From a virus, in the IMG/VR virus record IMGVR_UViG_3300030451_003695, positions 1-21,777 of that record: a stretch of DNA of 21,777 nt. The stretch is one strand, 5' to 3'. The stretch's first letter is position 1; each line of letters starts with the position of its first letter. The notes below the pieces were generated by a model, which was not told the origin of the DNA, ran no database searches, and worked only from the letters and a program-made list of their open reading frames with translations. Shown here piece after piece: positions 1-21,777 of this stretch. Position numbers and translations under genes: made by a program.

Positions 1-73
1 CTGAAGATAAAACTGTGTTAGCGTTGATAGCTCCTGCACCTATAAAACCTGTATTAATTTTAGTTTGAGACAT
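1..73 (-). CDS. A0: start of a third A-type fibre-like gene (partial)
   Basis: Only the first 24 codons are inside the window; the gene runs off the left edge. It starts with ATG at 73-71, preceded by a Shine-Dalgarno-like AAGG and an exact late promoter. The visible peptide (MSQTKINTGFIGAGAINANT, then VLSS) parallels the start of A1 (3950-4564), which has GAGAITANTVLSS at the same place. A 20-base stretch is identical in the two genes (3-22 and 4494-4513). In A1 this segment opens a shaft of ~10-residue repeats, so A0 is probably another short fibre or adhesin subunit. It follows C1 directly and would begin a further A-B-C unit. The rest of the protein cannot be seen, so its function is inferred from A1 alone. 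Confidence 0.75.
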   Translation of the reverse strand, partial: MSQTKINTGFIGAGAINANTVLSS

Positions 74-89
74 ACTTTACCTTTTTATC

Positions 90-97
90 TATTTATA
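90..97 (-). promoter_or_regulatory. T4-type late promoter upstream of A0
   Basis: TATAAATA reads exactly on the minus strand, in the 27-base gap between the C1 stop codon and the A0 start. It leaves a leader of about 10 bases if initiation follows T4 spacing. In T4 this element is recognised by RNA polymerase carrying gp55 and the gp33/gp45 co-activators, none of which is in this window. Confidence 0.75.
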
Positions 98-100
98 TGT

Positions 101-2584
101 TTACTTAGCAGTTACTGGATTTGTTCCGTCACCAATGAATGGGTGTTCAGCGAACGCTATATAAATAAACACTTCTCCAGATCTGTTACTACCTGAATTG
201 TTACTTCTTAATTTAAATCCATTTGATAAAAAATCTATTTGTTCTGATCCTGTTGATTCAGTGTTAGTTAAGTCTGGATAAAGAACACCATCCATTTGAT
301 TGAAAGGTGTACGTTTATTATCATACAAATACCAACTTGTTGCTCTTTGACGATTTCTAAGTAACAACCATGACGGCTTAAACCCAGTGTATATAAATGG
401 ACCATTTGAGTTTGCATTTCCCTTGTATGATCCAAATTTTGAAAAACCTTCTACTTCATGAAAAGCATACGTAACATAAGATTCTCCATTGCCATTAATA
501 ATTGCTGATGTTCCTAAAGTAATAACTGTGGATGATGGTGCCGTTGAATTGGTATAAGATGTGGATTGTATTTGTTGTTCAGCATTATTTAAGTCTACAA
601 AATATGAGCCGTCTGTTAATTTATGATGCCAAACCATCCAATCTCTATTATTAGTACTTGTGTTTTTAGTTATAAGAAAAGTAGGTGCTTGTGATAGTCC
701 GTGTCCAATAGTGGCTCCATTGGTACCATTACCAGTATGTTGAATTATGGAAAACCCAGCAGTTGAATTAACTTGAACGGTCGAATCAATTGATCCTGTA
801 TCATTAGTTGACGTAGTTCCTCCGTTACATACCCAATTCCAACTAACATATTTTTCATCTGCTGTATTAATAGATACATCATCTTCTATTGCAAATCCAC
901 CTTTTAAAAACTTTTGTAATCCATCTGTTGTTGTACTTTCTTGAGTTGTAGATATATTTAAATCTTTTTGTGGACCTCTATTACTATCATAAATTTGATG
1001 AGCGTCAGAAGCATCTCTGTTTTTAATCCAAACCCAATCTGGTTGATCTTTATTGGTTTCTGCCATATTATCTTGTCGTAACATTTTAAAACCACTTGGA
1101 ACACTATGATAAAAGTTTCCATTACCATCTCCATCTGAATTACCACCTGCTGTTTCATTACCATCAAAAGTAGGATTATCACCAAAGTTCCAATTAAAAG
1201 TATCACTGGATGTGACTGCCATAGCTGTAAACATAATTCTGCCTGGTCGCAGTATAGAAGCACTTCCAAGTGAACTTCCACTATTTGAATACCAAGTGAC
1301 TAAAGAATTATCTACATCAACTGCGATACCAATTACATCACCAGCAGCAAGAGCAGTTCCAGTTAAATTTGTTTGAACTGACGAAGATAAAGTTGAACTT
1401 GTAAGCCATCTATTACCATCATTTCTTATTTGCATGCCAACACCACAACCATCACCATTTGACAATTGTCCTCCTGGATAAAAGTTATATGTGTTATCCC
1501 AATAGTGCATATCTTCTTGGATGTAAATACCAAATGTTATGACATTACCACCTCCATTACTAGATATTCGTGCTTCTGCATACCATTTTCCGGAATTTGG
1601 TCTTAGTGTTGAACACATAGGATAACCAGCATTAGTTCCTGTAGGTGTGTATTGTAAATTACCTTTTCTTTGTGTAGTGACGTAACTAGGGTTGTATGGT
1701 CTCATTGTAGGTAGATTATTTGTAGGTGTGTCACTTCGTTGGTCTGAAGTAGTTAAATTTGAAGATGCATAATCATTAGTATTTCCACTTGTGTCATCTC
1801 CCAGAGATGAACTATCTTGGAACTTCATTCTAAACCCATTTGTACCATATGTAATACCACTTAATGTCTTAGGAATCCATCTGCCAGTTGAAGTGTCAGT
1901 TAAACCAAAGGTTGTAGGAGCAACTATACTTCCATCAACTAAATTAAATTCAGCTAAATATCCATCAAGATTGTTTGAAGTGGCTCCAGTAAATCTACCA
2001 ACATTATGCAATACAGTTGAATTTACTAATGTATCAAAATCTTGACTTGGTGCATTAGACCTATACCAACTTGTTACTTGATCACCGTCAATGTAAAGTT
2101 TTATTCTGTCAGTTGAATTAGATTGAGTCGTGTCTACTTGTAATAAAATATGATACCATTTACTCGTATCTTCGAATGTTCTATTTGTCCAATATTCTAT
2201 TTGTTCAGCACTACTTGAATATTCTCTTATATGTAATCTGTTTGCACCCTCCGTATCTCCACTTCCTGACCATTTAATATCAAAAAAAGAACTTCCACTT
2301 GAACCAGCATTAAAAATTCTTTGACCATAAGTATTGTTACCTACAGCATCACCTAATAGAGATCTTTTTGCCCATACTGAAACAGTAAATGTTTTTCTAT
2401 TACCAGCACTACTTGGTGTTCTAGTTAGCGAAACATTTGAAGAAGAATCAAACATACAACTTTTATCAATTGTACCATTATCGGTATATGGTAAGAATGT
2501 ACCTACTCTTTGACCCTGACCATTACCTGAGTATATAGTTGTAAAGAAATACTCTTCTCCTCTAATGATTGCAGGGATAGGCAT
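101..2584 (-). CDS. C1: large LamG/SPRY adhesin-like tail protein (827 aa)
   Basis: Probable virion-surface recognition protein. Three regions are visible. Residues ~55-228 form a LamG/concanavalin-type jellyroll, with typical strands such as WYHILLQVDTT and IKLYIDGDQV. Residues ~330-500 are SPRY-like (SGKWYAEARI, GDVIGIAVDVDN, FNWNFGDNPTF). Residues ~515-815 are a C-terminal phage region (WVWIKNRDASDAH, YVSWNWV, GFSKFGSYKGN, FIYTGFKPSWLLL, FIYIAFAEHPF), which I recall as a DUF7483-type domain of marine phages. The first ~45 residues (IIRG, FFTTIY, GQRVG, KSC-FD) are shared with C2 and are probably an attachment or assembly segment. The ATG overlaps the B1 stop (TAATG), and its Shine-Dalgarno AGGAG lies inside the last B1 codons, so the two are translationally coupled. 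No signal peptide or membrane segment is seen. The family call is good; the receptor is unknown. Confidence 0.85.
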   Translation of the reverse strand: MPIPAIIRGEEYFFTTIYSGNGQGQRVGTFLPYTDNGTIDKSCMFDSSSNVSLTRTPSSAGNRKTFTVSVWAKRSLLGDAVGNNTYGQRIFNAGSSGSSFFDIKWSGSGDTEGANRLHIREYSSSAEQIEYWTNRTFEDTSKWYHILLQVDTTQSNSTDRIKLYIDGDQVTSWYRSNAPSQDFDTLVNSTVLHNVGRFTGATSNNLDGYLAEFNLVDGSIVAPTTFGLTDTSTGRWIPKTLSGITYGTNGFRMKFQDSSSLGDDTSGNTNDYASSNLTTSDQRSDTPTNNLPTMRPYNPSYVTTQRKGNLQYTPTGTNAGYPMCSTLRPNSGKWYAEARISSNGGGNVITFGIYIQEDMHYWDNTYNFYPGGQLSNGDGCGVGMQIRNDGNRWLTSSTLSSSVQTNLTGTALAAGDVIGIAVDVDNSLVTWYSNSGSSLGSASILRPGRIMFTAMAVTSSDTFNWNFGDNPTFDGNETAGGNSDGDGNGNFYHSVPSGFKMLRQDNMAETNKDQPDWVWIKNRDASDAHQIYDSNRGPQKDLNISTTQESTTTDGLQKFLKGGFAIEDDVSINTADEKYVSWNWVCNGGTTSTNDTGSIDSTVQVNSTAGFSIIQHTGNGTNGATIGHGLSQAPTFLITKNTSTNNRDWMVWHHKLTDGSYFVDLNNAEQQIQSTSYTNSTAPSSTVITLGTSAIINGNGESYVTYAFHEVEGFSKFGSYKGNANSNGPFIYTGFKPSWLLLRNRQRATSWYLYDNKRTPFNQMDGVLYPDLTNTESTGSEQIDFLSNGFKLRSNNSGSNRSGEVFIYIAFAEHPFIGDGTNPVTAK

Positions 2585-3936
2585 TATGCTGCTCCTAAGT
2601 TAATTGAATTTATTGCATTAGACTCAGTAATACCAGATGGAGTTTGAGTCCATTCATTATACGCAAATCTAGCTGTACCATTTCTAGTACCATACAATAA
2701 AATATATGGACTTACAAATCCTGACGGTCCAGCATTAAATGCTTCACTTAAATTACCTTGACTTACTCCATTTTTATAAAATGTTACATTGTTAGTTGAA
2801 GTATCTGTATCTATTTTACAACCTATAACATCTCCTGTTGTATATGTAGCTCCATAACTAACTGTTGAAGAAGCATTATTATAAGTTTTTCCATTAATTG
2901 CGTATGTGACCCAACCTTCTGTGTCACCATAACTATTATCATCAGTCACACTTCTACTGGACTCAGACCAACCTATACTAAACTGGCCACTACTTGAACC
3001 TGCTGAATCAACATATAATTCATAATACCAAATACCACTATTAAGAGGAACTTGAATAGTTGTAAAACCACCTTTCCATGCAGAACTAGAAGTTGCAGCG
3101 TTTAGGTTACCATTAGAATAAACTTGTGCTGAACCTGTAATAGGGTTCCATGTACAATGATTATTTGTAGGAGAGTCAGTTTTTTGATCATTAGCAGCTA
3201 GGTTAGATGCACTAAAATCATTATCATTTCCAGACTCATCATCTCCTAAATCAGAACTATCTCTACCATCAATTTTAAATCCATTAGTTCCATACGATCC
3301 AGAATATTCTTTTGGTATCCATATACCATTATTGTTTGTTTCACCAAAGTATTCGGGACCATAACCATAACCATCAATAAAATGTATCTCCGCCAAATAG
3401 CTATCAAGTCTATTTGTAGATGTATTTGCACCACCAATATAATGAGCTTGGTTATTATTGAAATAACCTGAAGCATAATTTTCAGATGGATAATTTATAG
3501 TAGAAAAACTTGTTTGTCTTTCACCATTTACATAAAATCTCAATCTTTCACCTATTATTGCTTGAGATGAATCATGAACAAGTACAAAATGATACCATGC
3601 AGAATGATCTCTAAAAACTCGGTTTGTAATCATCATGTTTCCTGTTGGTTGATTCCAAACATAAAATTTATCAGCATAAAAATAAATGTAATCAGCAGAA
3701 TTTCCAAATGCAAGGTCTGTTCCAAATATAATTTCAGTTGAACTACCAGTTACTCCTCCTCGTTTTAGCCACCAACTAAAAGTATATGTTTTTCTATCAC
3801 CAGCACCACTAAATGTTTTTGACAAATAAGCGTTATCATTTCGATTAAATCTAATTGATTGGTCTATTGTGTAAGTTGCTACAGCTGTACTACCACTTGC
3901 TCCTTGTCTAATTAAGCCATCTTTGAATATCGACAT
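2584..3936 (-). CDS. B1: LamG + SPRY adhesin-like tail protein (450 aa)
   Basis: Probable surface or tail-associated recognition protein. Residues ~45-198 resemble a LamG/concanavalin-type jellyroll (KTYTFSWWLKRG, AWYHFVLVHD, LRFYVNGERQ, YLAEIHFIDG, FGETNNNGIWIP). Residues ~230-260 carry the linker GDDESGNDNDF followed by DSPTNN, which is also present in B2 and the C proteins. Residues ~298-428 resemble a SPRY domain (GIWYYELYVD, GDVIGCKIDTD, VTFYKNGV). It lacks the ~300-residue C-terminal region of the C proteins and ends INLGAA. Its TTAGGAGC codons also supply the Shine-Dalgarno of C1. It starts 13 bases after A1 ends, with GGAG upstream of the ATG and no promoter of its own, so it is probably co-expressed with A1 and C1. 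The fold calls rest on motif recognition only. Confidence 0.82.
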   Translation of the reverse strand: MSIFKDGLIRQGASGSTAVATYTIDQSIRFNRNDNAYLSKTFSGAGDRKTYTFSWWLKRGGVTGSSTEIIFGTDLAFGNSADYIYFYADKFYVWNQPTGNMMITNRVFRDHSAWYHFVLVHDSSQAIIGERLRFYVNGERQTSFSTINYPSENYASGYFNNNQAHYIGGANTSTNRLDSYLAEIHFIDGYGYGPEYFGETNNNGIWIPKEYSGSYGTNGFKIDGRDSSDLGDDESGNDNDFSASNLAANDQKTDSPTNNHCTWNPITGSAQVYSNGNLNAATSSSAWKGGFTTIQVPLNSGIWYYELYVDSAGSSSGQFSIGWSESSRSVTDDNSYGDTEGWVTYAINGKTYNNASSTVSYGATYTTGDVIGCKIDTDTSTNNVTFYKNGVSQGNLSEAFNAGPSGFVSPYILLYGTRNGTARFAYNEWTQTPSGITESNAINSINLGAA

Positions 3937-3949
3937 TCAATAGACTCCA

Positions 3950-4564
3950 TTATGTTACATTAAGTGACGCTACAGCATGAATAGCATTTGCAGCAACTAC
4001 AAGATAATCTATTCTATCTTGAGCATTAGCTGTTGTTGTAAGAGTTGGAGCGGTACCTCCTGGAAACTCCCATGCACCAGCATAGCTTAATGTTCTAGAT
4101 CCAGTTCCGTCCTGAGTTACTATAATACTTCCACCCTGTCCAACAGTTGGGTTAGATGGTAAGTTTAAATGAGTATTAATATTTAATGTCAAGTTAAATA
4201 TATTTGCATTGGCAAAGTTAAGTTGTACATTAGCTGCACCAACTGTTACTGATTCTACTCTACCAGATTGTGCTTTCTGATATGTATGGGTATTGTGTGT
4301 AAATACTCCATTTGAAGAGGCTATATCTCCAACAACTGCATTTGCATTTAGTTGTATAGCACCAACTGCATTACCTCTTATCTTAGCAGATGTAACAGCA
4401 TTGGAAGTTATTTTTGAATCTGTAATTGATAAATTTGCTATTTCTGATGTTCCAACATTTCCTGTAGCAATGAGATCTGCAGTTATAACACCAGAAGATA
4501 AAACTGTGTTAGCAGTTATTGCTCCTGCTCCTATTCCCGCTGTTCCTATTTTTGATAAAGCCAT
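3950..4564 (-). CDS. A1: short fibre-like protein with ~10-residue repeats and conserved C-terminal cap (204 aa)
   Basis: Residues ~12-80 are a run of 10-11-residue repeats, each starting with a small-residue-V/I motif (GAI 14, GVI 25, GNV 35, then 45, 55, 65, 75), as expected for a trimeric beta-rich fibre shaft. Residues ~98-204 form a compact cap with motifs QDGTGSRTLSYAGAWEFPGG, DRIDYLV and AIHAVASLNV. The cap is nearly identical in A2 and is common at the ends of marine phage fibre proteins. The ~100-residue N-terminal domain of A2 is missing, so A1 must attach to the virion differently or through partners. It starts 15 bases after the portal gene, with GAGG as Shine-Dalgarno, and heads the A1-B1-C1 cistron group. 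The function, short tail fibre or adhesin, is inferred. Confidence 0.78.
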   Translation of the reverse strand: MALSKIGTAGIGAGAITANTVLSSGVITADLIATGNVGTSEIANLSITDSKITSNAVTSAKIRGNAVGAIQLNANAVVGDIASSNGVFTHNTHTYQKAQSGRVESVTVGAANVQLNFANANIFNLTLNINTHLNLPSNPTVGQGGSIIVTQDGTGSRTLSYAGAWEFPGGTAPTLTTTANAQDRIDYLVVAANAIHAVASLNVT

Positions 4565-4578
4565 ATTTAATCCTCTTA

Positions 4579-6198
4579 TTATTTATCTTCAATTTCTGGA
4601 TTTGCATATTTAGTCATGTTATCAACTAGAGATTTTTCTTCTTCTGAAATAGTGTTTGCAGCTACAAAACTTTCTTGTTGTTCTTGTTCATTATCTTGCT
4701 GCTCATCACCTGACACATCATCCTCTGGTTCTTGTCTTTCTTCAACATCCATTTGTTTATCTTCATCTGCAATCTCATCCTCTGTCATTCTAAGTACATG
4801 AGATCTAACATACTGTTTACTAAAATATTTTCCTACAAATGAATCTACTTCTCCTAACAATCTTAATCTATCGCCCATAATCTCACTATACTTTAATTCT
4901 GCAAAATGGTTATCTTCTAAGAAATCATAATGAATATGTTCTCTCATTTCTTTCCATTCTGATCTTGAAGTAACACCAGTAAGAATTAGTTGAGTTTCAA
5001 GAATATTATCAAATAGTTGTGTAAATCTATTTCTTAATCTAGCAACAAACTTTGTAAACTTTAACTCATCTCTAGTTATTTCAGATGCTCTACCTAAATT
5101 AAAATTACTTTCAGGTTCCATTCTACTAATAGGAACATTTAACGCTTTATATAACTTCTTTTTAAAATACTCTACATCTTCCATTTCACCTAAGTTTTGT
5201 CCACCAGGTAAAGTTGTAATCTCAGTACTTCTACCACCTTCTCTTCTTGGTAACCAAAAGTCTTCCAACATAGTCATAAATTTTCTGTCATCTCTTACTT
5301 CACCAGTTTGAGCATCATAAACTAATTTATTTTTATGTTTAACCATCATATCTCTAAGATATTGTTCTGCTTTCATCTTAGGTAAGTTTCCAACATCAAT
5401 ATAAAATATTCTTCTTTCAGGTGCTCTTGCTAATCTATAGATAACAGTTGCATCTTCTAACATTCTTAACTGATTTAATGGTTTGATAGCTTTATGTAAA
5501 TGACCAAGTATCATAGCCATTCTGTTATCTAATAATCCTGTATGACAGAATATTATACTATCTTTACTAATCTTTAATCCTTGATTACTTCTGTTAATAC
5601 CTCTTGGATGATAGATATAATATTCAAGATAACCTTTTGTAAGGATAGCATTCATTTTATCATCCTTGGATTTTATAGGCTGTTTAACTTTTCTTATTTT
5701 TCTTGGATCAACTTGTCTAAGTTCTTGAATACCATCTCTTGGATTTTTTTCATCAATAACTACATGATAATATAATCTTCCATCTATATACCATCTTCTA
5801 AATAAATCATAAGCATTGGTGGTAAAATGTAATAATCTTAAAACTTTATCAAATTCTTCTCTTATTCTATTTTTAATTCCAACACTTGCTTTAAGATCAT
5901 CCAACACTATACTTACAGCTGGATCCTTTTCATTGTAAACTATAGCTTCATTTACTATATCATCAATAGCCAGATCAGCTTCTGGTTGTGTTGACATCTC
6001 TCTATATCTGGTAACAAGCTCTGCTTCAGACTTGGCAGTGCCTTCTAAATCTACATATGTTCCGTAAACACCACCGGGCGCTATCTCTAGCGCACCGTCA
6101 TTATCCTGTGGTGGAACAAACGACTTGAAATTATCGTTTTTTAATTTTTCTATCTCTGCTTTTCGGCCTATGGTAAAGCCAAATAAATCTATTGCCAT
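4579..6198 (-). CDS. 20: Portal vertex protein, T4 gp20 family (539 aa)
   Basis: Forms the dodecameric ring at one capsid vertex. It nucleates prohead assembly, is the channel through which gp17 pumps DNA, and docks the neck. The whole protein reads like cyanophage/T4 gp20: MAIDLFGFTIGRK at the start, VTRYREMSTQPEADLAIDDI (~83-102), RRWYIDGRLYYHVVID (~134-149), LRQVDPRKIRK (~159-169), a long stem/clip segment with RAPERRIFYIDVGNLPK (~258-274), and FNLGRASEITRDELKF (~365-380). T4 gp20 is 524 residues, so the length fits. The last ~65 residues are very acidic and Gln-rich (DEDKQMDVEERQEPEDD, DEQQDNEQEQQ). It has its own late promoter and a leader inverted repeat. gp19 lies upstream as in T4, but the downstream gene is A1 rather than the usual gp21 protease. 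Confidence 0.96.
   Translation of the reverse strand: MAIDLFGFTIGRKAEIEKLKNDNFKSFVPPQDNDGALEIAPGGVYGTYVDLEGTAKSEAELVTRYREMSTQPEADLAIDDIVNEAIVYNEKDPAVSIVLDDLKASVGIKNRIREEFDKVLRLLHFTTNAYDLFRRWYIDGRLYYHVVIDEKNPRDGIQELRQVDPRKIRKVKQPIKSKDDKMNAILTKGYLEYYIYHPRGINRSNQGLKISKDSIIFCHTGLLDNRMAMILGHLHKAIKPLNQLRMLEDATVIYRLARAPERRIFYIDVGNLPKMKAEQYLRDMMVKHKNKLVYDAQTGEVRDDRKFMTMLEDFWLPRREGGRSTEITTLPGGQNLGEMEDVEYFKKKLYKALNVPISRMEPESNFNLGRASEITRDELKFTKFVARLRNRFTQLFDNILETQLILTGVTSRSEWKEMREHIHYDFLEDNHFAELKYSEIMGDRLRLLGEVDSFVGKYFSKQYVRSHVLRMTEDEIADEDKQMDVEERQEPEDDVSGDEQQDNEQEQQESFVAANTISEEEKSLVDNMTKYANPEIEDK
4580..4587 (-). promoter_or_regulatory. Candidate weak late promoter upstream of A1
   Basis: GATAAATA differs from the T4 late consensus by one base and lies 15-23 bases upstream of the A1 start, at the spacing of the exact copies. 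It also encodes the last portal codons (Asp-Lys-stop), so chance is a real alternative. Confidence 0.35.
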
Positions 6199-6208
6199 GA
6201 CTACCCTT

Positions 6209-6229
6209 TAGTATTGTACTATAATACTA
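6209..6229 (-). promoter_or_regulatory. Inverted repeat between late promoter and start of gp20
   Basis: Two perfect 7-base arms (TAGTATT at 6229-6223 and AATACTA at 6215-6209, minus-strand sense) flank a 7-base spacer. The promoter-proximal arm overlaps the end of TATAAATA. The distal arm ends next to the Shine-Dalgarno-like AAAGGG. RNA coming through from gp19 could form the hairpin. RNA started at the late promoter would lack most of the first arm. Confidence 0.5.
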
Positions 6230-6235
6230 TTTATA
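6228..6235 (-). promoter_or_regulatory. T4-type late promoter upstream of gp20
   Basis: Exact TATAAATA on the minus strand in the 64-base gap between gp19 and gp20, about 30 bases upstream of the portal start. A sigma70-like pair also brackets it: TTGACC at 6241-6236 and TACAAT at 6218-6213, 17 bases apart. That pair would leave almost no leader, so the late element is the likelier signal. Confidence 0.8.
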
Positions 6236-6262
6236 GGTCAATACCTTTTTCAATCAATATTA

Positions 6263-6811
6263 CTAGTTGCCGCCAGCGTTACCAGTAACTCCACCAGAAA
6301 CTTCCCAATAATCATATGTGAAAGTAACTGTGAACTCACTAATAGCATCAGCAGCCCAATCCATTTCAATAGCAGCAACTTCTGTTGGAAAAATACCTAC
6401 AAAGTTGTATACTCTCAATGGAACACCAGTTTTACTGAACTGAGTCACTTGAGCATTTGACTTATAAAGTGTTGGTGACGAAGCACCAAAGTTTCTAAGG
6501 TTTCCTTGAAAACTATTAATAGTATTAGACCACTGTTCCATTGCATTTCTTATTGCAAAGTCTTCATCATTGATAACTGTAACCGTCCAGTCAGCAAATG
6601 TTCTATTTCCAGCTATTCTTAACTGTCTACCAAAATAAGGAACATCATTAATACCTAAGGTAGCAGCTGGAATCTGAGCAGCTCTACACAATAATGGTGT
6701 TTGGATATCTGCAGCAGCATTAGCCGGGTTAGTAATGTTGACTTGAAATAAGGATGGTCTAGCACCACCAAATTTAAGAGCACCTGCGAATAAGTTTATG
6801 TTGAATGCCAT
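6263..6811 (-). CDS. 19: Tail tube protein, T4 gp19 family (182 aa)
   Basis: Forms the stacked hexameric rings of the inner tail tube through which DNA passes. The sequence reads like cyanophage-type gp19 throughout: FAGALKFGGARPSLFQVNI (~8-26), LCRAAQIPAATLG (~41-53), PYFGRQLRIAGNRTFADWTV (~58-77), NDEDFAIRNAMEQWSN (~81-96) and a C-terminal FTVTFTYDYWEV strand (~159-170). It is slightly longer than T4 gp19 (163 residues), with a Gly/Asn-rich end. It directly follows the sheath gene, as in T4, with a 28-base gap that holds its own late promoter and a Shine-Dalgarno AGGAG at 6821-6825. Separate promoters for sheath and tube suit their high copy number in the virion. Confidence 0.96.
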   Translation of the reverse strand: MAFNINLFAGALKFGGARPSLFQVNITNPANAAADIQTPLLCRAAQIPAATLGINDVPYFGRQLRIAGNRTFADWTVTVINDEDFAIRNAMEQWSNTINSFQGNLRNFGASSPTLYKSNAQVTQFSKTGVPLRVYNFVGIFPTEVAAIEMDWAADAISEFTVTFTYDYWEVSGGVTGNAGGN

Positions 6812-6830
6812 TTGTTTTTTCTCCTACTCT

Positions 6831-6838
6831 TATTTATA
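6831..6838 (-). promoter_or_regulatory. T4-type late promoter upstream of gp19
   Basis: Exact TATAAATA on the minus strand, one base past the gp18 stop codon. AGGAG follows at 6825-6821 and the ATG at 6811-6809. This is a compact late promoter-leader layout. Confidence 0.8.
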
Positions 6839-6839
6839 C

Positions 6840-8801: not shown

Positions 8802-8852
8802 TTTTTAATTCTCCTACTAAATTTTAGTTTTATAATGAACTCTTTTATGAAT

Positions 8853-8860
8853 TATTTATA
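8853..8860 (-). promoter_or_regulatory. T4-type late promoter upstream of gp18
   Basis: Exact TATAAATA on the minus strand in the 70-base gap between gp17 and gp18. It lies about 50 bases upstream of the ATG, the longest leader among the late promoters here. No strong hairpin was seen in that leader. Confidence 0.78.
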
Positions 8861-8871
8861 ATTTTTTAGAT

Positions 8872-12620: not shown

Positions 12621-12621
12621 A

Positions 12622-13397: not shown

Positions 13398-13402
13398 AAC
13401 AA

Positions 13403-14029
13403 TTAATCGTTTGGATCCGTTGGCCACTTTTGTAGATCAGCCTCATAGTTTATATCACCATTTGCATGATATGTAGAAGTATTTAACGATATCAAAGCAT
13501 CTACATCTGAAGCAGAATTAATTTTGGCTTCCATTATCCCTGAATTTGCTCTTACTGAGTTAATATAAGTATTAACAGTTTTTGGAATAGCGGTTCCAGC
13601 TTGTGCTAACCTCAGAGTATACCAATCATATTTTGATATCAAATTTTGAGCTGTTTCTTTTATTTGATTCTTCCAAAGTGATTTAAGACCTAATGATTTA
13701 ACATCTCCAACATCTTTTCCTTCTGGGATAACTCCATCTGTTTTGTCTTGACTAGTGTATGTTGAATCAGCCAAATCTTTAGCAGTTGATGAATAAGTGC
13801 CTACTACTGTCCCTGCACTATCATTTACTGTATAAGAGATACCACCCATGTTATAATAGAATGTATCTTTTTGACCAGTTTCTGAATATGAATATAGTCC
13901 TATTGCTTTTAGTGCTGCAGGTGTCCAAATTCTAAAAATAGATGCTGGATACTGCGTTCCGTTAATAGTCATAGCCTTTGGACCATTAATGATCTCTATT
14001 ACTTGACTTGCTTTAACTCTTGCCCACAT
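13403..14029 (-). CDS. Probable tail fibre assembly chaperone-like protein (208 aa)
   Basis: The start MWARVKASQVIEIINGPKAM, followed by a short FRIWTPAALKAIGLYSY region, resembles the small chaperone-like proteins encoded beside tail fibre genes, which often begin MWA(R/K)-(I/V)-(E/K). The C-terminal half (~130-170: NLISKYDWYTLRLAQAGTAI, then VNTYINSVRA) is also like the 'DWY-x-(I/V)-R-...-G-x-(A/P)-(I/V)-P' end of fibre assembly proteins. It follows C2 directly and so sits at the end of the A2-B2-C2 set, which suits a helper for folding or attachment of these adhesins. It has its own late promoter and a good Shine-Dalgarno (AGGAG at 14038-14042). No catalytic motif is seen. The assignment rests on N- and C-terminal resemblance and position; a structural accessory role is possible. 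Confidence 0.6.
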   Translation of the reverse strand: MWARVKASQVIEIINGPKAMTINGTQYPASIFRIWTPAALKAIGLYSYSETGQKDTFYYNMGGISYTVNDSAGTVVGTYSSTAKDLADSTYTSQDKTDGVIPEGKDVGDVKSLGLKSLWKNQIKETAQNLISKYDWYTLRLAQAGTAIPKTVNTYINSVRANSGIMEAKINSASDVDALISLNTSTYHANGDINYEADLQKWPTDPND

Positions 14030-14051: not shown

Positions 14052-14059
14052 TATTTATA
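14052..14059 (-). promoter_or_regulatory. T4-type late promoter upstream of the chaperone-like gene
   Basis: Exact TATAAATA on the minus strand in the 53-base gap after the C2 stop codon. AGGAG follows ten bases downstream and the ATG is at 14029-14027. Confidence 0.78.
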
Positions 14060-14082
14060 AAAGTTTTTGTTTAATCCATTAA

Positions 14083-16437
14083 TTATCTTGCTGTTGGGAT
14101 TGTAATACCATCTGCTCCATGAAATGGGTGTTCTGCAAACGCCATGTAGACGTAAGTACCACCACTTCTGTTAATTTGAGAATTAGTTGTTCTGCATTTA
14201 AATCCATTTGATACAACATCTAAATCGATTGATGAACCATTATCTCCTTGAGTTAAATCAGCAAACAAAGAATTATTTGTAGGATTACGTGTGAACCTGG
14301 AATTATCCCATATTGGCCAATTGTTTGAAGAACTGTTTTCTTTGATCATAATCCATGCCGGCTTGAACCCGGTAAAGATAAAAGTACCATCCGCATTTCC
14401 ATTTCCCGTGTATGATCCAAATTTTGAGAATCCTTCAACACTTCTCCAGACATATGCAACCACATCAGACCCATTATTATTACTATTAGAATTACTACCA
14501 AGTTGAATATACGTACTACTAACACCAGTAAATTGTGTAGTAGCTGCACCAGAATCAACCATAGCATCAGGTTCATTTAAATGTAAATATTTATTAATAC
14601 CATTATACACATGATATACCGAGGTAGCTGCTCCAGCACCCGCATCCAATCTTTTTACAATAAACCATTCAGGAGTAGCTGATAATCCATGAGCAAATCT
14701 TAATGTACTCCCTGTTCCTTGAAATCTACAAATACTAAAACCAGCTGTATCATTTGCTTGGACAGTAGTTGCAACTGTTGCACCTGATCCGTCTGTATTG
14801 GCAACTTCAGTACCACTATTACCAACCCAATTCCATGCAACATAACTTTCACCATTAGTATTAAGAGCATCATTATCTTCAGTTGCAAATCCACCTATCA
14901 AAAATTTTTGTAATCCATCAGTTACAGTAGCTTCATTTGATTCAGAATTTTCCCATTCTTTTTGTGGTCCTCTTGATGAGTCATAGAAAGCATGAGCATC
15001 TGAAGCATCTCTATTTTTGATCCAAACAAAATCTGAGAGTCCTGCTTTTGTTGACGTAGGAAGGTTGTCTTGTTGTAAAGCCACAAAGCCAGTTGGTGGG
15101 GTGTAGCTGAAAGATTTTTGACCAAAGTTTGCTGTCCAACCACCATTATAACCAGTTGCTCCATCACCAACTGCAAAAGTATAATTACTATTAGGTATAC
15201 TTAATGTACCTTGACTTGCGTTATTTTTAAAAAACTGAACAGTAAGATTATCTAAATCCAAAGCTATTCCAATAACATCATTTGTTGTATATGTTGCATA
15301 AGTTACATCATAACTATTACTGGAATTGTAATACACTCTTCCGTTATATCCATAATACATATATCCTGCTAAACTTCCATCAGGTGGTTCAGGTAATCGT
15401 GTTGAGTTTGATCCGTATGGAAGTAATAAAGTAGAAGCTACTCCAACTTCAGCACGAGAAGCAACATCAACTGTAAATTCAGCATAATATTTACCACTAC
15501 TTGGTTTAAGTGTAGCATTATGATGTGAGAAATCAGAATTACCAGTAACAAGTTTTAAGTTACCCTCACTTAAAGTACCACCAGTTCCTTCTAATGTAGC
15601 ATGATTCTGAGTAGGACTGTCTGTTACAATATCACTAGCAACTAAATTTGTAACTGTTAAATCATTTCCATTACCACTAGTATCATCACCTATTGTTTGT
15701 CCTGCTGTGTTAGCAAATTGCATTCTATATCCGTTTGTACCATATGTGATTCCGGTTAATGTTTTTGGTATCCATCTTCCTGTTGAAGTATCAGTTAGAC
15801 CAAAGGTTGAAGGTGTTAATGCTGTACCATCAACAAAATTAAATTCTGCAATATAAGCACCTATAAAGGCATTTGTTGTACTCGTGGTTGTTTGTCCTCC
15901 AATGTTATGTTTTATTTGTGTATTAATAATTGAATTTGTAGGCACACTTGACCTATTATCAGTAGCAAATGAAGTTATTTGATCTCCATCAACATATAGC
16001 TTTATCTTATCAGTTCCACTTTGTGAAGAATCATTAGCAACTAAAATATGATAAAACTTAGATGTGTCTTCAAAAGTTCTATTTGTTGTAAAAATACTTG
16101 TACCACTACTATAAAATCTAAGTTTAAAATCTTCCATAAAAAGCCCAGCACTTGATGCTGAGTTCCATGCATCATCAGAAGAACTAGCATATAACAAAAT
16201 TCCATAATTTGACGTTGTTGGTTTAAACCATAGTGAGATAGTAAAGACACCCTTATTACCATCACTAGATGGAGTTCTTATTAATGATCCTGTGCTCGAT
16301 TTATCAAATATACAACTCTTTGCAATGGTACCATCATCATCAAAAGGTACAAACTTACCAACACGTTGACCTTTTCCATTACCTTCGTATATGGTTGTAA
16401 AGAAATGATCGGATCCTCTTATAATAGTTGCTGCCAC
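14083..16437 (-). CDS. C2: large LamG/SPRY adhesin-like tail protein (784 aa)
   Basis: Paralogue of C1 and C3 with the same layout. A shared N-terminal segment (IIRG, HFFTTIYEGNGKGQRVG, KSCIFD) comes first. A LamG-like jellyroll follows at ~55-215 (FTISLWFKP, FYHILVANDSS, IKLYVDGDQI, YIAEFNFVDG), then the linker GDDTSGNGNDL (~250-260). A SPRY-like region spans ~314-452 (SGKYYAEFTV, NDVIGIALDLDN, VQFFKNNASQG). The C-terminal phage region covers ~468-775 (FVWIKNRDASDAH, YVAWNWVGN, GFSKFGSYTGN, FIFTGFKPAWIMI, YVYMAFAEHPF). The start is GTG at 16437-16435. An ATG overlapping the B2 stop (16439-16437) is in the wrong frame and soon meets a stop codon, and AGGAG at 16444-16448 lies six bases from the GTG. 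It is coupled to B2 without a promoter. Receptor unknown. Confidence 0.85.
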   Translation of the reverse strand: MAATIIRGSDHFFTTIYEGNGKGQRVGKFVPFDDDGTIAKSCIFDKSSTGSLIRTPSSDGNKGVFTISLWFKPTTSNYGILLYASSSDDAWNSASSAGLFMEDFKLRFYSSGTSIFTTNRTFEDTSKFYHILVANDSSQSGTDKIKLYVDGDQITSFATDNRSSVPTNSIINTQIKHNIGGQTTTSTTNAFIGAYIAEFNFVDGTALTPSTFGLTDTSTGRWIPKTLTGITYGTNGYRMQFANTAGQTIGDDTSGNGNDLTVTNLVASDIVTDSPTQNHATLEGTGGTLSEGNLKLVTGNSDFSHHNATLKPSSGKYYAEFTVDVASRAEVGVASTLLLPYGSNSTRLPEPPDGSLAGYMYYGYNGRVYYNSSNSYDVTYATYTTNDVIGIALDLDNLTVQFFKNNASQGTLSIPNSNYTFAVGDGATGYNGGWTANFGQKSFSYTPPTGFVALQQDNLPTSTKAGLSDFVWIKNRDASDAHAFYDSSRGPQKEWENSESNEATVTDGLQKFLIGGFATEDNDALNTNGESYVAWNWVGNSGTEVANTDGSGATVATTVQANDTAGFSICRFQGTGSTLRFAHGLSATPEWFIVKRLDAGAGAATSVYHVYNGINKYLHLNEPDAMVDSGAATTQFTGVSSTYIQLGSNSNSNNNGSDVVAYVWRSVEGFSKFGSYTGNGNADGTFIFTGFKPAWIMIKENSSSNNWPIWDNSRFTRNPTNNSLFADLTQGDNGSSIDLDVVSNGFKCRTTNSQINRSGGTYVYMAFAEHPFHGADGITIPTAR

Positions 16438-16438
16438 A

Positions 16439-17965
16439 TTAAGCTCCTAAATTTTGTGAACAGATTGCTAAATATCCTGATAAAGGCGTATAATAGAATT
16501 TGCCTAATCCGTTACTATCAGATGCAGCGTTACTACCTGAAGTTTTATTACCATTAAAAGAATCATCCTGACCAAAATTGACATTTATTTTTGCAACTTG
16601 ATCATTTGCAAGTGTAAATCTTGGTACCCAATCTATTCCTTCTAGTGTTAAATTATCTGTTGGTGAAGTTGAATCAAAATCAACTGAACCATACAAAGAT
16701 CCATCTACATAAACTTTAAACTCATTATTATCAAAATCTGTATAAACTCCTATAATTTTACCATTCTGAAAAGGTGTCAATCCAGTTGCAACACTACTAC
16801 TTGTACCCCAAAACCATGTTGAATACGCGCTTCCAGTATGTCTCTGATTTAATCCAAAATCTCTAGTTGGAGAAGCGGTAGCTGTAGCACAATCTTCTAC
16901 ATCAGCATATCCTAAACCAAATGCTTCAGTAGAAGGATAAGTTGTTGTATACAATTCATAATACCACTTACCAGTTTTAACTGTCATATTACCAGCTCCA
17001 AAACCGTTTTGGTTTCCAGCAGGTTTAGAAACAAAAGATAATCCTTGATCTCTAACTCCTCTTACTGTCTGACCACTATCATAAGAATATTTGTCAAGGG
17101 AATTAAGAATACAAAAATTATTTGTTGGAGTATCTTTTACAATATCATGACTATCCATGTTGTTACCAGTAAAATTATTTCCATTACCACTCTGATCATC
17201 AGTAGGTGTTCCAGATGCTCCATTAAGATAAACCCCTGGAGTTCCAAAACTTATAGAACTTGTATCAATTTCAATAGGTCTCCATATTCCGTTAGAATCA
17301 AATTCTCCAAATGTTTCAGGTCCATATGCAGTACCAGAAACAACAACAATGTCTGACATATACCCATCAAAATAAAAGTTTTGTGCGTAACTATTTACAC
17401 TACTATAAGCTCCAAATGCATATGTACATCCTGTACCACCAAACCAATAAGTTCTATCTTTAGATCCTGGAGTAAATGAAGAAAAATCTTCTTCTCTTTC
17501 TCCGTTGATATACAGTCTAACTCTTTCATTTGCTTCGTCTTGTGTTGTATCATGTACTAGAACTAAATGATACCATGCACTAATATCTCTAAATGAACGA
17601 TTAGTTTTAAATACTAACACATAAGATGGTGATGGAGATATAGATGTACTTGCACCATTTAATTGTGCATAATATTGTAACTTACCATCTGTGGTAAAGG
17701 TCACTGAACCATATCTACCATTACTTCCATAAAAAGCTCCGAACATATAATTTGTAGTACCAGCACCAATAGCATAACCACCTAGTTTAAACCACATACT
17801 GATTGTAGAAGTAGTAACTCCAGCAGAACTTCCTGGAACGCTCCTATGCATAAGAGATTTAGCTTCTTGATTAAATCTAATTGATTGTGATACTTGATGA
17901 GCTGCATCAGCTGTTCCAGCTCCTGAAGCTCCGGATAAAATACTTGATTCAGATAATGAAGACAT
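16439..17965 (-). CDS. B2: LamG + SPRY adhesin-like tail protein (508 aa)
   Basis: Paralogue of B1 with the same plan. A short N-terminal stretch with GASGAGTADAA and QSIRFN parallels GASGST and QSIRFN in B1. A LamG-like jellyroll spans ~45-220 (TSTISMWFKLGG, AWYHLVLVHDTTQ, VRLYINGERE, YMSDIVVVSG, FGEFDSNGIWRP). The linker DDQSGNGNNF then DTPTNN is at ~258-290. A SPRY-like region lies at ~325-490 (GKWYYELYTTTY, KIIGVYTDFDN, FKVYVDGSLYGS, INVNFGQDDSF). It ends LAICSQNLGA. The TTAGGAGC codons before the stop double as the C2 Shine-Dalgarno, exactly as at the end of B1. It begins 10 bases after A2, with AGGAGT upstream of the ATG and no promoter, so it is co-transcribed with A2. Confidence 0.83.
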   Translation of the reverse strand: MSSLSESSILSGASGAGTADAAHQVSQSIRFNQEAKSLMHRSVPGSSAGVTTSTISMWFKLGGYAIGAGTTNYMFGAFYGSNGRYGSVTFTTDGKLQYYAQLNGASTSISPSPSYVLVFKTNRSFRDISAWYHLVLVHDTTQDEANERVRLYINGEREEDFSSFTPGSKDRTYWFGGTGCTYAFGAYSSVNSYAQNFYFDGYMSDIVVVSGTAYGPETFGEFDSNGIWRPIEIDTSSISFGTPGVYLNGASGTPTDDQSGNGNNFTGNNMDSHDIVKDTPTNNFCILNSLDKYSYDSGQTVRGVRDQGLSFVSKPAGNQNGFGAGNMTVKTGKWYYELYTTTYPSTEAFGLGYADVEDCATATASPTRDFGLNQRHTGSAYSTWFWGTSSSVATGLTPFQNGKIIGVYTDFDNNEFKVYVDGSLYGSVDFDSTSPTDNLTLEGIDWVPRFTLANDQVAKINVNFGQDDSFNGNKTSGSNAASDSNGLGKFYYTPLSGYLAICSQNLGA

Positions 17966-17974
17966 TATAAACTC

Positions 17975-18955: not shown

Positions 18956-18971
18956 TTTTTATCCTTAATCC

Positions 18972-19002
18972 TATTTATACAATATCCTTAAAGTTTTGTC
19001 AA
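18972..19002 (-). promoter_or_regulatory. Late promoter upstream of A2 overlapping a sigma70-like promoter
   Basis: TATAAATA (18979-18972) is an exact T4-type late element. On the same strand TTGACA (19002-18997) stands exactly 17 bases upstream of TATAAA, the standard sigma70 -35/-10 spacing. One stretch may thus be read both by unmodified host polymerase and by late-modified polymerase. The -35 begins three bases after the C3 stop codon. AT-rich DNA gives TATAAA often; the perfect -35 at perfect spacing is the notable part. Confidence 0.65.
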
Positions 19003-19004
19003 CT

Positions 19005-21401
19005 CTAGATACTAGTTGCTAATGAAGTTCCATCATGTATTGGATGTTCTGCAAACGCCATATAAATATGAGTTCCATTGTTAATATCTGTTGAAGTCAT
19101 TCTTAATTTAAATCCACTAGCTAAAAAATCACACTGTACAGTTGATTCAACAGCATTTGATTCCCATCTAACATAATTTTTATTAGTAGTATTGTTAACA
19201 TTTCTTTCTCTATCCATCACTAACCATTTACCAGTGCTACTTATTCTCTTAATCATCAGAAATTTTGGTTTGAACCCAGTAAAAATGTAAGGACCATCAG
19301 CATTTGCATTTCCCGTATAGGATCCAATATGTGAATAGCCAGGAACACTATGCCAGCAATATGCAATAGCATCTCTATTATTAATAGTTGTTAAATTTTT
19401 TGCAAATGTAGTGGAAGTAATACTTCCCCATAAATTAGAACTATAGTTTGTTTGTGCATTAGTTAAATTTAATGTTAAATAATAATTTACTGATGTTAAA
19501 TCTTTGTGCCAAACAAACCAATTGTTATTGTTAGGTGAAATTTCCTTATAGATAATAAATTCTGGAGTCTGAGATAATCCATGTGCTAATGATCCGTCAA
19601 AATATTTACCTGTTACAATACTAAAACCAGCTGTTTGATTAGCTTGTATTGAAGAGGCTTGTGTCGCTCCAGAACCATCAGTGTTAGCAGAAGTAGTTCC
19701 TCCATTAGCTACCCAGTTCCAAGATATATACGATTCATTTACTGAATTAATTGAAGCATCATCTTCAATTGAAACACCACCTTTCAAAAACTTTTGTACA
19801 CCATCAGGAATATCTTGTGAAATACTCATTTGACTAGATTGTAAATTTTTCCTTACTCCTCTTGAACTATCATACAACTGAGGATGATCAGTTGCATCTC
19901 TATTTTTAACCCAGAATAAATCTGGTATACCTTTTCCGGTCTCAGGCAAGTTGTCTTGTTGCATTGCATTATATCCTGTTGGAGGAGTATATGCAAATGT
20001 TTTTTGACCAAAGTTATAAGTCAATGTTGTTCCATTATGTGTATATTGTAATGGTACAAGTGGTCCTGGCATTCCAAATCTAAGTGCTTTAGAAACATCT
20101 GAATTAGCTATTTCTGATGCAGTAGCTGAGTTCATCCAAGTTCCATTTTTTGAAAACCATACTGCTCCTTTATCAGCATCTATAGCAAAACCTATAACAT
20201 CATTTGTTGTAAATGAACTTCCATAAGTACCAGGAGAATAAGTACCAACATCACCTACAGTTGTATATCCTTGACCAGTATCACTTCTTATATAAGCTCC
20301 TTCTATTTTTTGAAGTGGGTTGTCTTGAGTGTAATGGTCTCTATAATCTGATTCTTTTCCAACACCTATAAGAAATAGTGTTGGACCAGCTGTTGTTATA
20401 GTTATTTCACAATAATATTTTCCTGAAGATAATGGCATATTTGAAGCTATAGAATTACCTTGAGATCCTCCTGTTTGGGCTGCTTTTAGATTTCCTTCAG
20501 AAGTTTGTATATATGTGTTTTTGATAACATTGTGTAAAGTTGCATGGTTTTGAGTAGGGCTATCTGTAGTAACATCGTTACCATCTAAATTTGTAACTGT
20601 AAAATCATTTCCATTACCACTTGTATCATCACCAATAGTTAAACCAGCAGTATTTGCAAATGTTAATCTGTATCCTTGTGAACCATATGTAATCCCAGAT
20701 AAAGTTTTAGGAACCCATCTTCCAGTCGAAGTGTCTGTTTGACCAAAAGTGTCAGGTGTTAATGCAGCTCCATCAACCATATTTACTTCTGCCAAATAAC
20801 CAAGACCTCTTACAATACTTGCTTGATTCGTATTTCCTAAAGTATTTTCAAAGGTTGTCTGGTTCCAATAACCAGTTTTATTAGAACCGGCTTGGGTTGG
20901 TGTTGAATTCCAAGTTGTTACTCTTTCTCCGTCAACATAAATTTTAATTCTATCAGCTTGAGTTGAATCAGTTGTATCTCTTACTACCATAATATGGTAC
21001 CACTTACTAGTATCTTCAAATGTTCTACTTGTTTGATAACTCCAATCATACGAACCTGGAGAAGATTTGATACAGTAATAATATAACTGATCACCAGTAG
21101 TAAATTCAAGTGCCTCTCCAACTGAAGAATAGTTATTACATATTAGGATTTGTCTTATTGTGCCTCCAGTAACACCTCTTTTAACCCAACATGAGAAACT
21201 TAATGTTGTATCATTTCCATTTGATCCTGGTGTTCTACCTAACCTAGCTTGAGCAGTGTTATGATTAATAATAACACTCTTATCTATAGTACCACTATCT
21301 GTGAATGGAACAAAGTTTCCAACTCTTTGTCCAGTACCAGTACCTTCGTACTTGTTTACAAAAAAATGTTCTTCTGGTTTTACTATAGTCGGTGTACCCA
21401 T
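19005..21401 (-). CDS. C3: large LamG/SPRY adhesin-like tail protein (798 aa)
   Basis: Third member of the C family and the most diverged at its ends. The N-terminal segment keeps the pattern (HFFVNKYEGTGTGQRVGNFV, then GTIDKS). The LamG-like jellyroll spans ~55-225 (TLSFSCWVKRG, WYHIMVVRDTT, IKIYVDGERV, YLAEVNMVDG, FGQTDTSTGRWVP). The linker GDDTSGNGNDF with DSPTQNH follows. The SPRY-like region begins near SSGKYYCEITI (~325) and includes NDVIGFAIDADK and VWFSKNGTWM. The C-terminal region carries LFWVKNRDATDHPQLYDSSR, YISWNWVANGG, HIGSYTGNA, YIFTGFKPKFLMI and IYMAFAEHPI. The ATG lies 10 bases after the preceding B-like gene, with AGGA as Shine-Dalgarno and no late promoter, so it looks coupled to that gene as C1 is to B1. 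Probable host-recognition protein. Confidence 0.84.
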   Translation of the reverse strand: MGTPTIVKPEEHFFVNKYEGTGTGQRVGNFVPFTDSGTIDKSVIINHNTAQARLGRTPGSNGNDTTLSFSCWVKRGVTGGTIRQILICNNYSSVGEALEFTTGDQLYYYCIKSSPGSYDWSYQTSRTFEDTSKWYHIMVVRDTTDSTQADRIKIYVDGERVTTWNSTPTQAGSNKTGYWNQTTFENTLGNTNQASIVRGLGYLAEVNMVDGAALTPDTFGQTDTSTGRWVPKTLSGITYGSQGYRLTFANTAGLTIGDDTSGNGNDFTVTNLDGNDVTTDSPTQNHATLHNVIKNTYIQTSEGNLKAAQTGGSQGNSIASNMPLSSGKYYCEITITTAGPTLFLIGVGKESDYRDHYTQDNPLQKIEGAYIRSDTGQGYTTVGDVGTYSPGTYGSSFTTNDVIGFAIDADKGAVWFSKNGTWMNSATASEIANSDVSKALRFGMPGPLVPLQYTHNGTTLTYNFGQKTFAYTPPTGYNAMQQDNLPETGKGIPDLFWVKNRDATDHPQLYDSSRGVRKNLQSSQMSISQDIPDGVQKFLKGGVSIEDDASINSVNESYISWNWVANGGTTSANTDGSGATQASSIQANQTAGFSIVTGKYFDGSLAHGLSQTPEFIIYKEISPNNNNWFVWHKDLTSVNYYLTLNLTNAQTNYSSNLWGSITSTTFAKNLTTINNRDAIAYCWHSVPGYSHIGSYTGNANADGPYIFTGFKPKFLMIKRISSTGKWLVMDRERNVNNTTNKNYVRWESNAVESTVQCDFLASGFKLRMTSTDINNGTHIYMAFAEHPIHDGTSLATSI

Positions 21402-21410
21402 ATTTTTTTC

Positions 21411-21777
21411 CTAAAAAAGATTTTTTGTCCTTAATGCTTTGAATCCTGAAGGGACTGAATACTTAAAGTTACCATTACCATCTCCATCAGTATTGTTTCC
21501 AGCTGTAACATTACCTGCGAAAGTTCCTTCTTGTCCAAAATTTATTATTGTTGTTGCATGTGTATAGTTTCCAATAAATGGTACAAAAAAACCAGTTGAA
21601 GGCGATCTAGAGCTAAAATCAAATCCTTGATTTCCAGCTTCAACCTCTGATTGATCGATTGTAGCACCACTTGCTTGGTTAGCTCTATACCACTGTCCAT
21701 TTTTTGACCACCAGATTAATTGATTATCAATATCAACAGCAACTCCAACTATATCTCCATTATTAGAAATAAAAGCA
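21411..21777 (-). CDS. B3: C-terminal part of a B-like SPRY protein (partial)
   Basis: The open frame runs off the right edge; 122 codons plus a TAG stop (21413-21411) are visible. The translated end reads like the second half of a SPRY-like domain: NNGDIVGVAVDIDNQLIWWS, then KNGQW, later IINFGQEGTFAGN, a Gly/Asn/Asp-rich stretch, and NFKYSVPSGFKAL close to the stop, ending TKNLF. The same segment occurs inside C1 (FNWNFGDNPTF to GNFYHSVPSGFKML, residues ~463-502) and, less closely, at the end of B2. The protein stops where B proteins stop, and C3 follows within 10 bases, so it is most likely the B member of another A-B-C unit. Its upstream part and start are outside the window. Confidence 0.78.
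   Translation of the reverse strand, partial: AFISNNGDIVGVAVDIDNQLIWWSKNGQWYRANQASGATIDQSEVEAGNQGFDFSSRSPSTGFFVPFIGNYTHATTIINFGQEGTFAGNVTAGNNTDGDGNGNFKYSVPSGFKALRTKNLF

What the first reader, a model, noticed from the sequence alone, without database searches (positions are those of the whole stretch)
1..21777. Repeated A-B-C adhesin cassette on both sides of the T4 morphogenesis core
Two complete units (A2-B2-C2 at 18955-14083 and A1-B1-C1 at 4564-101) and two partial ones (B3-C3 at the right edge, A0 at the left) have the same gene order, orientation and coupling. A is a fibre-like shaft plus cap, B is LamG+SPRY, and C is LamG+SPRY+C-terminal domain. LamG/SPRY proteins are known in marine phages. 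What is unusual is a whole three-gene module repeated around a fixed gp13-gp20 block. The phage may display several related recognition complexes at once, or keep a library of alternatives for recombination. Which of these applies is inference.
Basis: partly seen in the sequence, partly recalled or inferred. Interest (0 to 1): 0.78.

Follow-up and report, generated by a model that had tools for sequence, protein, structure and literature searches.

The report
Four adhesin cassettes flank phage core
A marine T4-like virus of bacteria carries four versions of the same three-gene host-recognition set, two on each side of its conserved neck-to-portal genes, and the recognition parts look collected from other marine phages rather than copied in place, which would give one particle several different grips on bacterial surfaces.

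Summary
The window lies, at 99.77% identity, inside a 69-kb contig that contains the flanks. They complete both partial units: exactly four intact A-B-C units, two upstream of gp13 and two downstream of gp20, all in one direction, with known T4 structural genes beyond them on both sides. A fourth gene, X, belongs to the module. A-B-C-X or A-X-B-C is common in marine viral contigs, usually once per contig.

"Repeated" is misleading. The B and C copies are not in-place duplicates: each pairs with genes of other phages, and a single origin of the resident copies is rejected. The A caps do form one lineage-specific clade. Between two near-identical strains, all 14 amino-acid-changing codons fall in B and C. 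Relatives with 99% identical gp13 have unrelated C genes.

Best explanation: A is a virion-specific adaptor; B and C are exchangeable surface-binding heads in two hypervariable host-recognition sites; all four sets are probably made late and displayed together. Simultaneous display is inferred; no proteomics exists.

The upstream site is the known host-recognition island of marine T4-like phages, and phages with several adhesins are known. The fourfold, two-sided stocking is new.

The parts
21411..21776 (-). B3, LamG-SPRY head protein, 5' end beyond the window (complete, 492 aa, in the 69-kb contig)
   Evidence: ORF open at edge; full ORF at G001 29277-30755; SPRY/phrog_27411
19005..21401 (-). 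C3, LamG-SPRY-DUF7483 head protein, 798 aa
   Evidence: PF24299 E 4e-80, SPRY E 2e-9
18972..18979 (-). T4-type late promoter element TATAAATA ahead of unit 2
   Evidence: 16 nt upstream of the A2 start codon
17975..18955 (-). A2, adaptor/fibre protein 326 aa: N-terminal fibre domain (9-87), repeat shaft, C-terminal cap (223-326)
   Evidence: phrog_18673 tail fiber E 4e-23; fold search; profile match to cyanophage P-SCSP1u fibre 8i4m_e E 7e-15
16439..17965 (-). B2, LamG-SPRY head protein 508 aa
   Evidence: PF13385 E 1.5e-10
14083..16437 (-). C2, LamG-SPRY-DUF7483 head protein 784 aa
   Evidence: PF24299 E 2e-87; model pLDDT 77.9, LamG 37-277, SPRY 278-460
14052..14059 (-). late promoter element TATAAATA ahead of X
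13403..14029 (-). X, fourth gene of the module, 208 aa; adjacent to B/C in many phages, proposed fibre-assembly chaperone
   Evidence: co-occurrence; sub-threshold Phage_tail_APC E 0.087 in one homologue
4579..13371 (-). conserved morphogenesis core gp13-gp14-gp15-gp16-gp17-gp18-gp19-gp20 between the two adhesin sites (context, not part of the cassettes)
   Evidence: PHROGs
3950..4564 (-). A1, short adaptor 204 aa (shaft + cap, no N-terminal fibre domain), 14 nt after gp20
   Evidence: 56% to A2; alignment
2584..3936 (-). B1, LamG-SPRY head protein 450 aa
   Evidence: SPRY E 7e-15; phrog_27411
101..2584 (-). C1, LamG-SPRY-DUF7483 head protein 827 aa, overlaps the B1 stop by 1 nt
   Evidence: PF24299 E 3e-101; gap table
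90..97 (-). late promoter element TATAAATA ahead of unit 0
   Evidence: 16 nt upstream of A0
1..75 (-). start of A0 (215 aa in the 69-kb contig, followed there by B0 486 aa and C0 795 aa)

Best explanation
The window shows the two hypervariable host-recognition sites of a marine T4-like phage, one just upstream of gp13 and one just downstream of gp20, each filled with two A-B-C adhesin cassettes. A is an adaptor built for this virion: it ends in a conserved cap and, in A2 and A3, begins with a tail-fibre attachment domain. B and C are lectin-like heads (LamG + SPRY, C also DUF7483) that carry short conserved N-terminal tails for docking and bind host surface glycans or proteins. X is a likely assembly helper shared by the four sets. 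New cassettes, or new B and C heads, arrive by recombination with other marine phages, not by copying in place. All four sets are expressed late and displayed together, giving one particle several related but different binding complexes. Shown: architecture, four intact units, separate ancestry of B and C copies, lineage-specific A, strain differences confined to B and C, turnover in near-identical relatives, late promoters. Inferred: presence in the virion, docking of B and C on A, ligand type, X as chaperone, simultaneous display.
For: Four intact units in one contig, structural genes on both sides. Window and contig are separate assemblies (49 mismatches in 21.8 kb) with the same junctions. 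AU test rejects a single origin of C1-C3 (p 5.5e-11) and of B1-B3 (p 2e-146); A0-A3 caps are not rejected as one clade (p 0.196) and group with the sister phage's A caps at 100/99. B and C of a unit have different nearest phages (C3 with L388, B3 with L290/L292/L281/L287). Strain comparison: A + X + core 21 synonymous, 0 non-synonymous codons; B + C 10 and 14 (Fisher p 1.2e-5). Relatives with gp13 99% identical have X at 64% and C at 37-48%, no closer to C2 than paralogues are. Downstream site empty (gap 15-217 nt) in 20 loci, filled with fibre-type genes in others. Module A-B-C-X / A-X-B-C recurs in other contigs with B-to-C gap median 1 nt. B and C fused into one protein next to A in L086. 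11 of 11 same-strand TATAAATA in 69 kb are intergenic, 5-51 nt before a gene, including A2 and A0. No RVT_1 or resolvase in the records.
Against: No proteomics or binding data. A1 and A0 lack the fibre N-terminal domain, so how the downstream sets attach is unclear; they might be decaying or dock elsewhere. Units 1 and 3 have no TATAAATA of their own and would depend on read-through. The record is incomplete, so recombinases or reverse transcriptases elsewhere in the genome are not excluded. The cap's resemblance to gp10-like branching domains is weak (Z 6-8.9). AU comparisons used neighbours chosen after seeing a larger tree.
Confidence: 0.66

Rival explanations
1. Alternative-set library: only one unit is displayed at a time or per lineage, and the others are a reserve of heads exchanged by recombination.
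For: Synonymous identity is locally raised between paralogues at the A0/A1 start (23 of 29 codons against 13.1 expected) and in the C0/C1 LamG-SPRY linker, hinting at exchange. Strain differences in B1 and B2 come in tight clusters of 6 changes in 17-18 nt, as patch conversion would give.
Against: All units are intact, co-oriented and in the late-gene direction, and two have their own late promoters. No inverted arrangement, no resolvase or reverse transcriptase in the records. The two strains share the same four-unit order.
Confidence: 0.17
2. In-place tandem duplication of one ancestral cassette followed by divergence.
For: Same gene order and coupling in all units; A caps of the genome are close to one another (A0, A1, A3 at 72-74%).
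Against: AU tests reject it for B and C. Codon identity between paralogues is at the level expected from codon usage, so there is no sign of recent copying outside short patches.
Confidence: 0.07
3. The downstream sets do not belong to the tail: they decorate the head or neck, or are non-virion proteins, since they lie among head genes and A0/A1 lack the fibre domain.
For: A0 and A1 start directly with the shaft; PHROGs lists relatives as 'head and packaging' virion structural proteins; the downstream site lies between portal and prohead genes.
Against: The same site carries collagen-type fibres with A caps in relatives; PHROGs category is not evidence of location; gene position among head genes does not fix protein location.
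Confidence: 0.15
4. Assembly artefact: repeated units mis-joined in a metagenome contig.
For: Metagenomic origin; units 0 and 3 are complete in one contig only.
Against: Two assemblies with 49 differences share every junction inside the window; relatives have comparable insertions at the same two sites; units are only 32-77% alike in protein, too different for assembler confusion.
Confidence: 0.04

Closest known systems
Host recognition cluster (HRC) of pelagimyophages and cyanomyophages (PMC7029224)
   Same: Hypervariable island with fibre and concanavalin-A-like proteins in the structural region upstream of gp13/gp14 of marine T4-like phages; our upstream units sit in this position.
   Different: The paper describes one island; here a second site after gp20 is also filled, and both hold repeated copies of one defined A-B-C module. 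The paper's text does not mention SPRY.
Branched multi-tailspike complexes of Ackermannviridae (CBA120, S117; PMC11414711)
   Same: Several receptor-binding proteins encoded together, conserved N-terminal docking parts, variable binding parts, gene swapping; A cap shows weak fold likeness to CBA120 TSP4 and T4 gp10 (Z 6-7).
   Different: Heads are LamG/SPRY/DUF7483, not depolymerase tailspikes; units lie at two loci 9 kb apart; no XD/TD domains shown; assembly untested.
DUF7483 proteins (PF24299) with LamG/SPRY in pelagiphages, roseophages, OM43 phage and cyanophages
   Same: Same domain order; homologues at 29-36% identity in HTVC011P, HTVC103P, MEP301, CRP-811, S-B68 and others; HTVC103P has two LamG-SPRY + DUF7483 gene pairs.
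   Different: No paper in the held library names DUF7483; the fourfold two-sided arrangement was not seen elsewhere in 153 further loci.
Metaviromic islands of marine phages (PMC3909814)
   Same: Recognition genes, lectin-like and carbohydrate-binding, are the parts that differ between otherwise near-identical marine phages.
   Different: Described by read recruitment and mostly podophages; no module structure given.

Membership tests
T4-like (Straboviridae/Kyanoviridae-type) marine myovirus | gp13-14-15-16-17-18-19-20 synteny followed by prohead genes, gp21, gp22 | tested here: met
   PHROGs assignments for gp13-gp20; prohead-type gene and head scaffolding protein downstream in the contig
T4-like (Straboviridae/Kyanoviridae-type) marine myovirus | late promoters TATAAATA / NATAAATA before late genes (PMC2984593) | tested here: met
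   11 of 11 same-strand matches in 69 kb intergenic and just upstream of genes; 7 of 7 in the window
Host recognition cluster of marine T4-like phages | non-syntenic island with adhesins upstream of the neck genes that varies between close relatives | tested here: met
   gp13 99% identical while C is 37-48%
Host recognition cluster of marine T4-like phages | bounded by VrlC | tested here: inconclusive
   a 2143-aa protein (phrog_358, unknown function) bounds the island; not shown to be VrlC
DUF7483 family (PF24299) | score above the curated cut-off | tested here: met
   C1 339, C2 294, C3 270 bits against cut-off 27
Branched receptor-binding complex (Ackermannviridae type) | XD/TD or gp10-like docking domains | tested here: inconclusive
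   A cap vs CBA120 TSP4 and T4 gp10 chains Z 6-7, best hit a capsid spike Z 8.9
Branched receptor-binding complex (Ackermannviridae type) | several different receptor-binding proteins in one virion | not testable with these tools
   needs proteomics or EM
Phase-variable (invertible) fibre cassette | inverted alternative segments and a site-specific recombinase | tested here: not met
   all units co-oriented; no resolvase match in the 69-kb record, though the record is incomplete and tyrosine recombinases were not searched
Diversity-generating retroelement target | reverse transcriptase and template repeat | tested here: inconclusive
   no RVT_1 match in the 69-kb record; the record is incomplete

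The most novel reading that the evidence does not exclude
A-B-C-X is a self-contained, exchangeable host-recognition module of marine phages in which A fits the module to a given virion and B and C are interchangeable heads; this phage stacks four modules at two sites so that one particle displays four different binding complexes, with DUF7483 as a new kind of adhesin domain.
Probability: 0.35. Interest if true: 0.75.

Novelty: new variant of a known kind. Interest (0 to 1): 0.52.

Why it matters
Host range of abundant marine T4-like phages is poorly understood because their adhesins are hard to recognise. The work gives a recognisable four-gene adhesin module (A, B, C, X) found across many marine phage contigs, points to which parts stay fixed to fit the virion (A, N-terminal tails) and which are swapped (B, C heads), and shows a second hypervariable site after gp20. 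It makes testable whether one virion carries several receptor-binding complexes.

Tried and rejected
Recent in-place duplication: rejected for B and C by AU tests and by codon identity at the codon-usage level. Assembly artefact: rejected, two assemblies share the junctions. Phase switching or DGR: no support. Host assignment: the contig's PstS has 60-62% matches in marine Alphaproteobacteria MAGs, but only nine hits in all and one at 58% in a gammaproteobacterium (Aliikangiella), so the host is left open. X against Pfam and PDB: only a sub-threshold Phage_tail_APC match in one homologue and nothing credible in the PDB. A2 model is of low overall confidence (pLDDT 64, pTM 0.36), so its fold matches are leads. 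The DUF7483 part of the C2 model was not matched to a known fold in the list obtained, which was filled by LamG and SPRY rows; it was not searched alone. Patch-conversion signal between paralogues is weak after many windows.
Full report
Observation. The window is a 21,777-bp virus record with all main genes on the - strand. Two complete A-B-C units and two partial ones are present as described. In-window similarity is far beyond chance. The core is gp13 (head-tail adaptor type), gp14 (head closure), gp15 (tail sheath stabilizer), gp16/gp17 (terminase), gp18 (sheath), gp19 (tube), gp20 (portal) by PHROGs. C proteins carry DUF7483 (PF24299) and SPRY; B proteins Laminin_G_3 and/or SPRY. A matches tail-fibre families.

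Flanks. A search with gp17 and A1 found IMGVR_UViG_3300030116_007754, 69,051 bp, which aligns to the window over 21,776 bp at 99.77%. It contains exactly four complete units. In gene order: 2143-aa protein, two small proteins, A3-B3-C3, A2-B2-C2, X, gp13 to gp20, A1-B1-C1, A0-B0-C0, then a prohead-type gene and further small genes, a gp21-position gene, and the head scaffolding protein. Beyond the 2143-aa protein lie baseplate genes. So the count is two plus two, bounded on both sides.

Relatives of the core. In a sister phage (62-kb contig IMGVR_UViG_3300025120_000045, gp17 75%) the upstream site holds A, A, B, C, X and the downstream site a collagen-repeat fibre, A and a LamG-only remnant of B, without C. 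L132 has gp20, collagen fibre, A, B, C, then the prohead gene. In 20 loci gp20 is followed within 217 nt by the prohead/protease genes, that is, the site is empty; in others it carries 1.3-9.5 kb, often a collagen-repeat fibre. Upstream of gp13, other T4-like contigs carry A-C-X-type series, for example C-A-C-X-A-C in L265 and A-BC-A-BC in L086. This upstream position matches the host recognition cluster described for pelagimyophages and cyanomyophages (PMC7029224).

Turnover. Contigs whose gp13 is 99% identical to the window have X at 64% and C at only 37-48% identity to C2; downstream, a contig with gp20 at 92% carries a collagen fibre and then an A only 64% like A0. Between the window and the 69-kb contig, codon differences in A, X and gp13-gp20 are 21 synonymous and 0 non-synonymous; in B and C they are 10 and 14 (Fisher p 1.2e-5). 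Several changes in B1 and B2 are clustered (6 changes in 17-18 nt).

Ancestry of the units. With C homologues from other contigs, C3 pairs with L388, C2 with L357/L358/L361, C1 with L415/L425/L292, and C0 stands alone. Forcing C1-C3 together costs 294 log-likelihood units (AU p 5.5e-11). B1, B2 and B3 likewise fall in different groups (AU p 2e-146), and the neighbours of a unit's B differ from those of its C. The A caps behave differently: those of this phage and its sister form one clade (100/99), and A0-A3 as one clade is not rejected (p 0.196). Comparison rows were picked near the resident copies after a first tree, so the p-values are indicative, but the likelihood gaps are very large. The simplest reading is an adaptor that stays with the virion lineage and heads that come from a common pool.

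The module elsewhere. Two profile scans gave 153 further loci. Among 96 distinct C-type units outside this phage the commonest arrangements are A-B-C-X (17), A-X-B-C (13), A-X-B-DUF7483 gene (11), A-C-X (11) and A-B-BC-X (6); the rest are shorter, many cut by contig ends. B-to-C gaps have median 1 nt (82 of 92 between -10 and 20 nt). The loci were found with B and C queries, so B and C are enriched by design; the adjacency of A and X is not. Most of these loci show no T4 core genes in the fetched stretch, and only this phage showed more than one full A-B-C unit. X also lies next to C homologues in isolates of Pelagibacter, Roseobacter and OM43 phages.

Structure. The C2 model (pLDDT 77.9) has a LamG/pentraxin-like domain at 37-277 and a SPRY domain at 278-460 (Z up to 21.7), then DUF7483. 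Its first 34 residues are predicted disordered yet are the best conserved part among seven C proteins of this clade (61% mean identity against 48% LamG, 30% SPRY, 45% DUF7483), which fits a docking tail. B proteins have a different conserved tail (GASG...SIRFN), which C proteins of relatives without B also have. In A2 (model pLDDT 64) residues 9-87 resemble fibre N-terminal domains of T7-like phages and cyanophages (Z 6-7; profile match to P-SCSP1u fibre E 7e-15); the cap resembles a capsid spike (Z 8.9) and, more weakly, CBA120 TSP4 and T4 gp10 (Z 6-7). gp10-like domains are the known linkers in branched adhesin complexes (PMC11414711), so this is a useful lead, not proof.

Expression. TATAAATA, the T4-type late promoter (PMC2984593), occurs 11 times on the gene strand of the 69-kb contig, every time in an intergenic gap 5-51 nt before a gene, including A2, A0, X, gp13, gp18, gp19, gp20. 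Units 1 and 3 lack one and would be read from upstream promoters; A1 has GATAAATA overlapping the gp20 stop region, which may be coincidence. No reverse transcriptase or serine recombinase was found.

Judgement. The arrangement is real and the module is real. It is best read as modular accumulation of adhesin sets at two host-recognition sites, likely for simultaneous display. Multi-adhesin phages, hypervariable recognition islands and LamG/SPRY marine adhesins are known separately; the defined A-B-C-X module, the second site after gp20 stocked with the same module, and the contrast between conserved adaptor and imported heads are the new elements.

Noticed in passing
IMGVR_UViG_3300030116_007754 (L117, L118), contig 58326-64764: Auxiliary metabolic genes: PstS-type phosphate-binding protein, redoxin, IscU/NifU_N, Fe-S biosynthesis (IscA/SufA type) and a fused SoxY-SoxZ protein; fused soxYZ is known in marine phages (PMC8190135).
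   Followed up: partly
downstream of gp20 in L122, L125, L132, L139, L140, L159, L172, L173, L180, L187, L190 and others: Many marine T4-like contigs carry a collagen-repeat fibre gene with a conserved N-terminus directly after gp20; the window phage lacks it and has A1 there instead.
   Followed up: partly
window 13403-14029: Gene X is a widespread uncharacterised family tied to this adhesin module; conserved DW...YR...R motif, sub-threshold like a tail assembly chaperone; only one X serves four units here.
   Followed up: partly
L086 5879-9715 and 10366-14247: B and C fused into one protein (LamG-SPRY twice plus DUF7483), twice in tandem with A upstream of gp13.
   Followed up: yes
L003 (Synechococcus phage S-B68) 19914-24701 and L274 (phage C72C1) 30272-34696: Single proteins with two or three DUF7483 domains in series.
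   Followed up: no
L005 against the 69-kb contig: gp16-gp19 essentially 100% identical but gp15 88% in protein, suggesting a recombination break inside the core.
   Followed up: no
L018/L120 around G002 50177-50956: A LamG-only remnant of B (259 aa) after A, with no C, looks like a decaying downstream unit.
   Followed up: no
window 160-167 and 19061-19068, + strand: TATAAATA on the opposite strand at equivalent places inside C1 and C3; probably the coding sequence of a conserved stretch.
   Followed up: no
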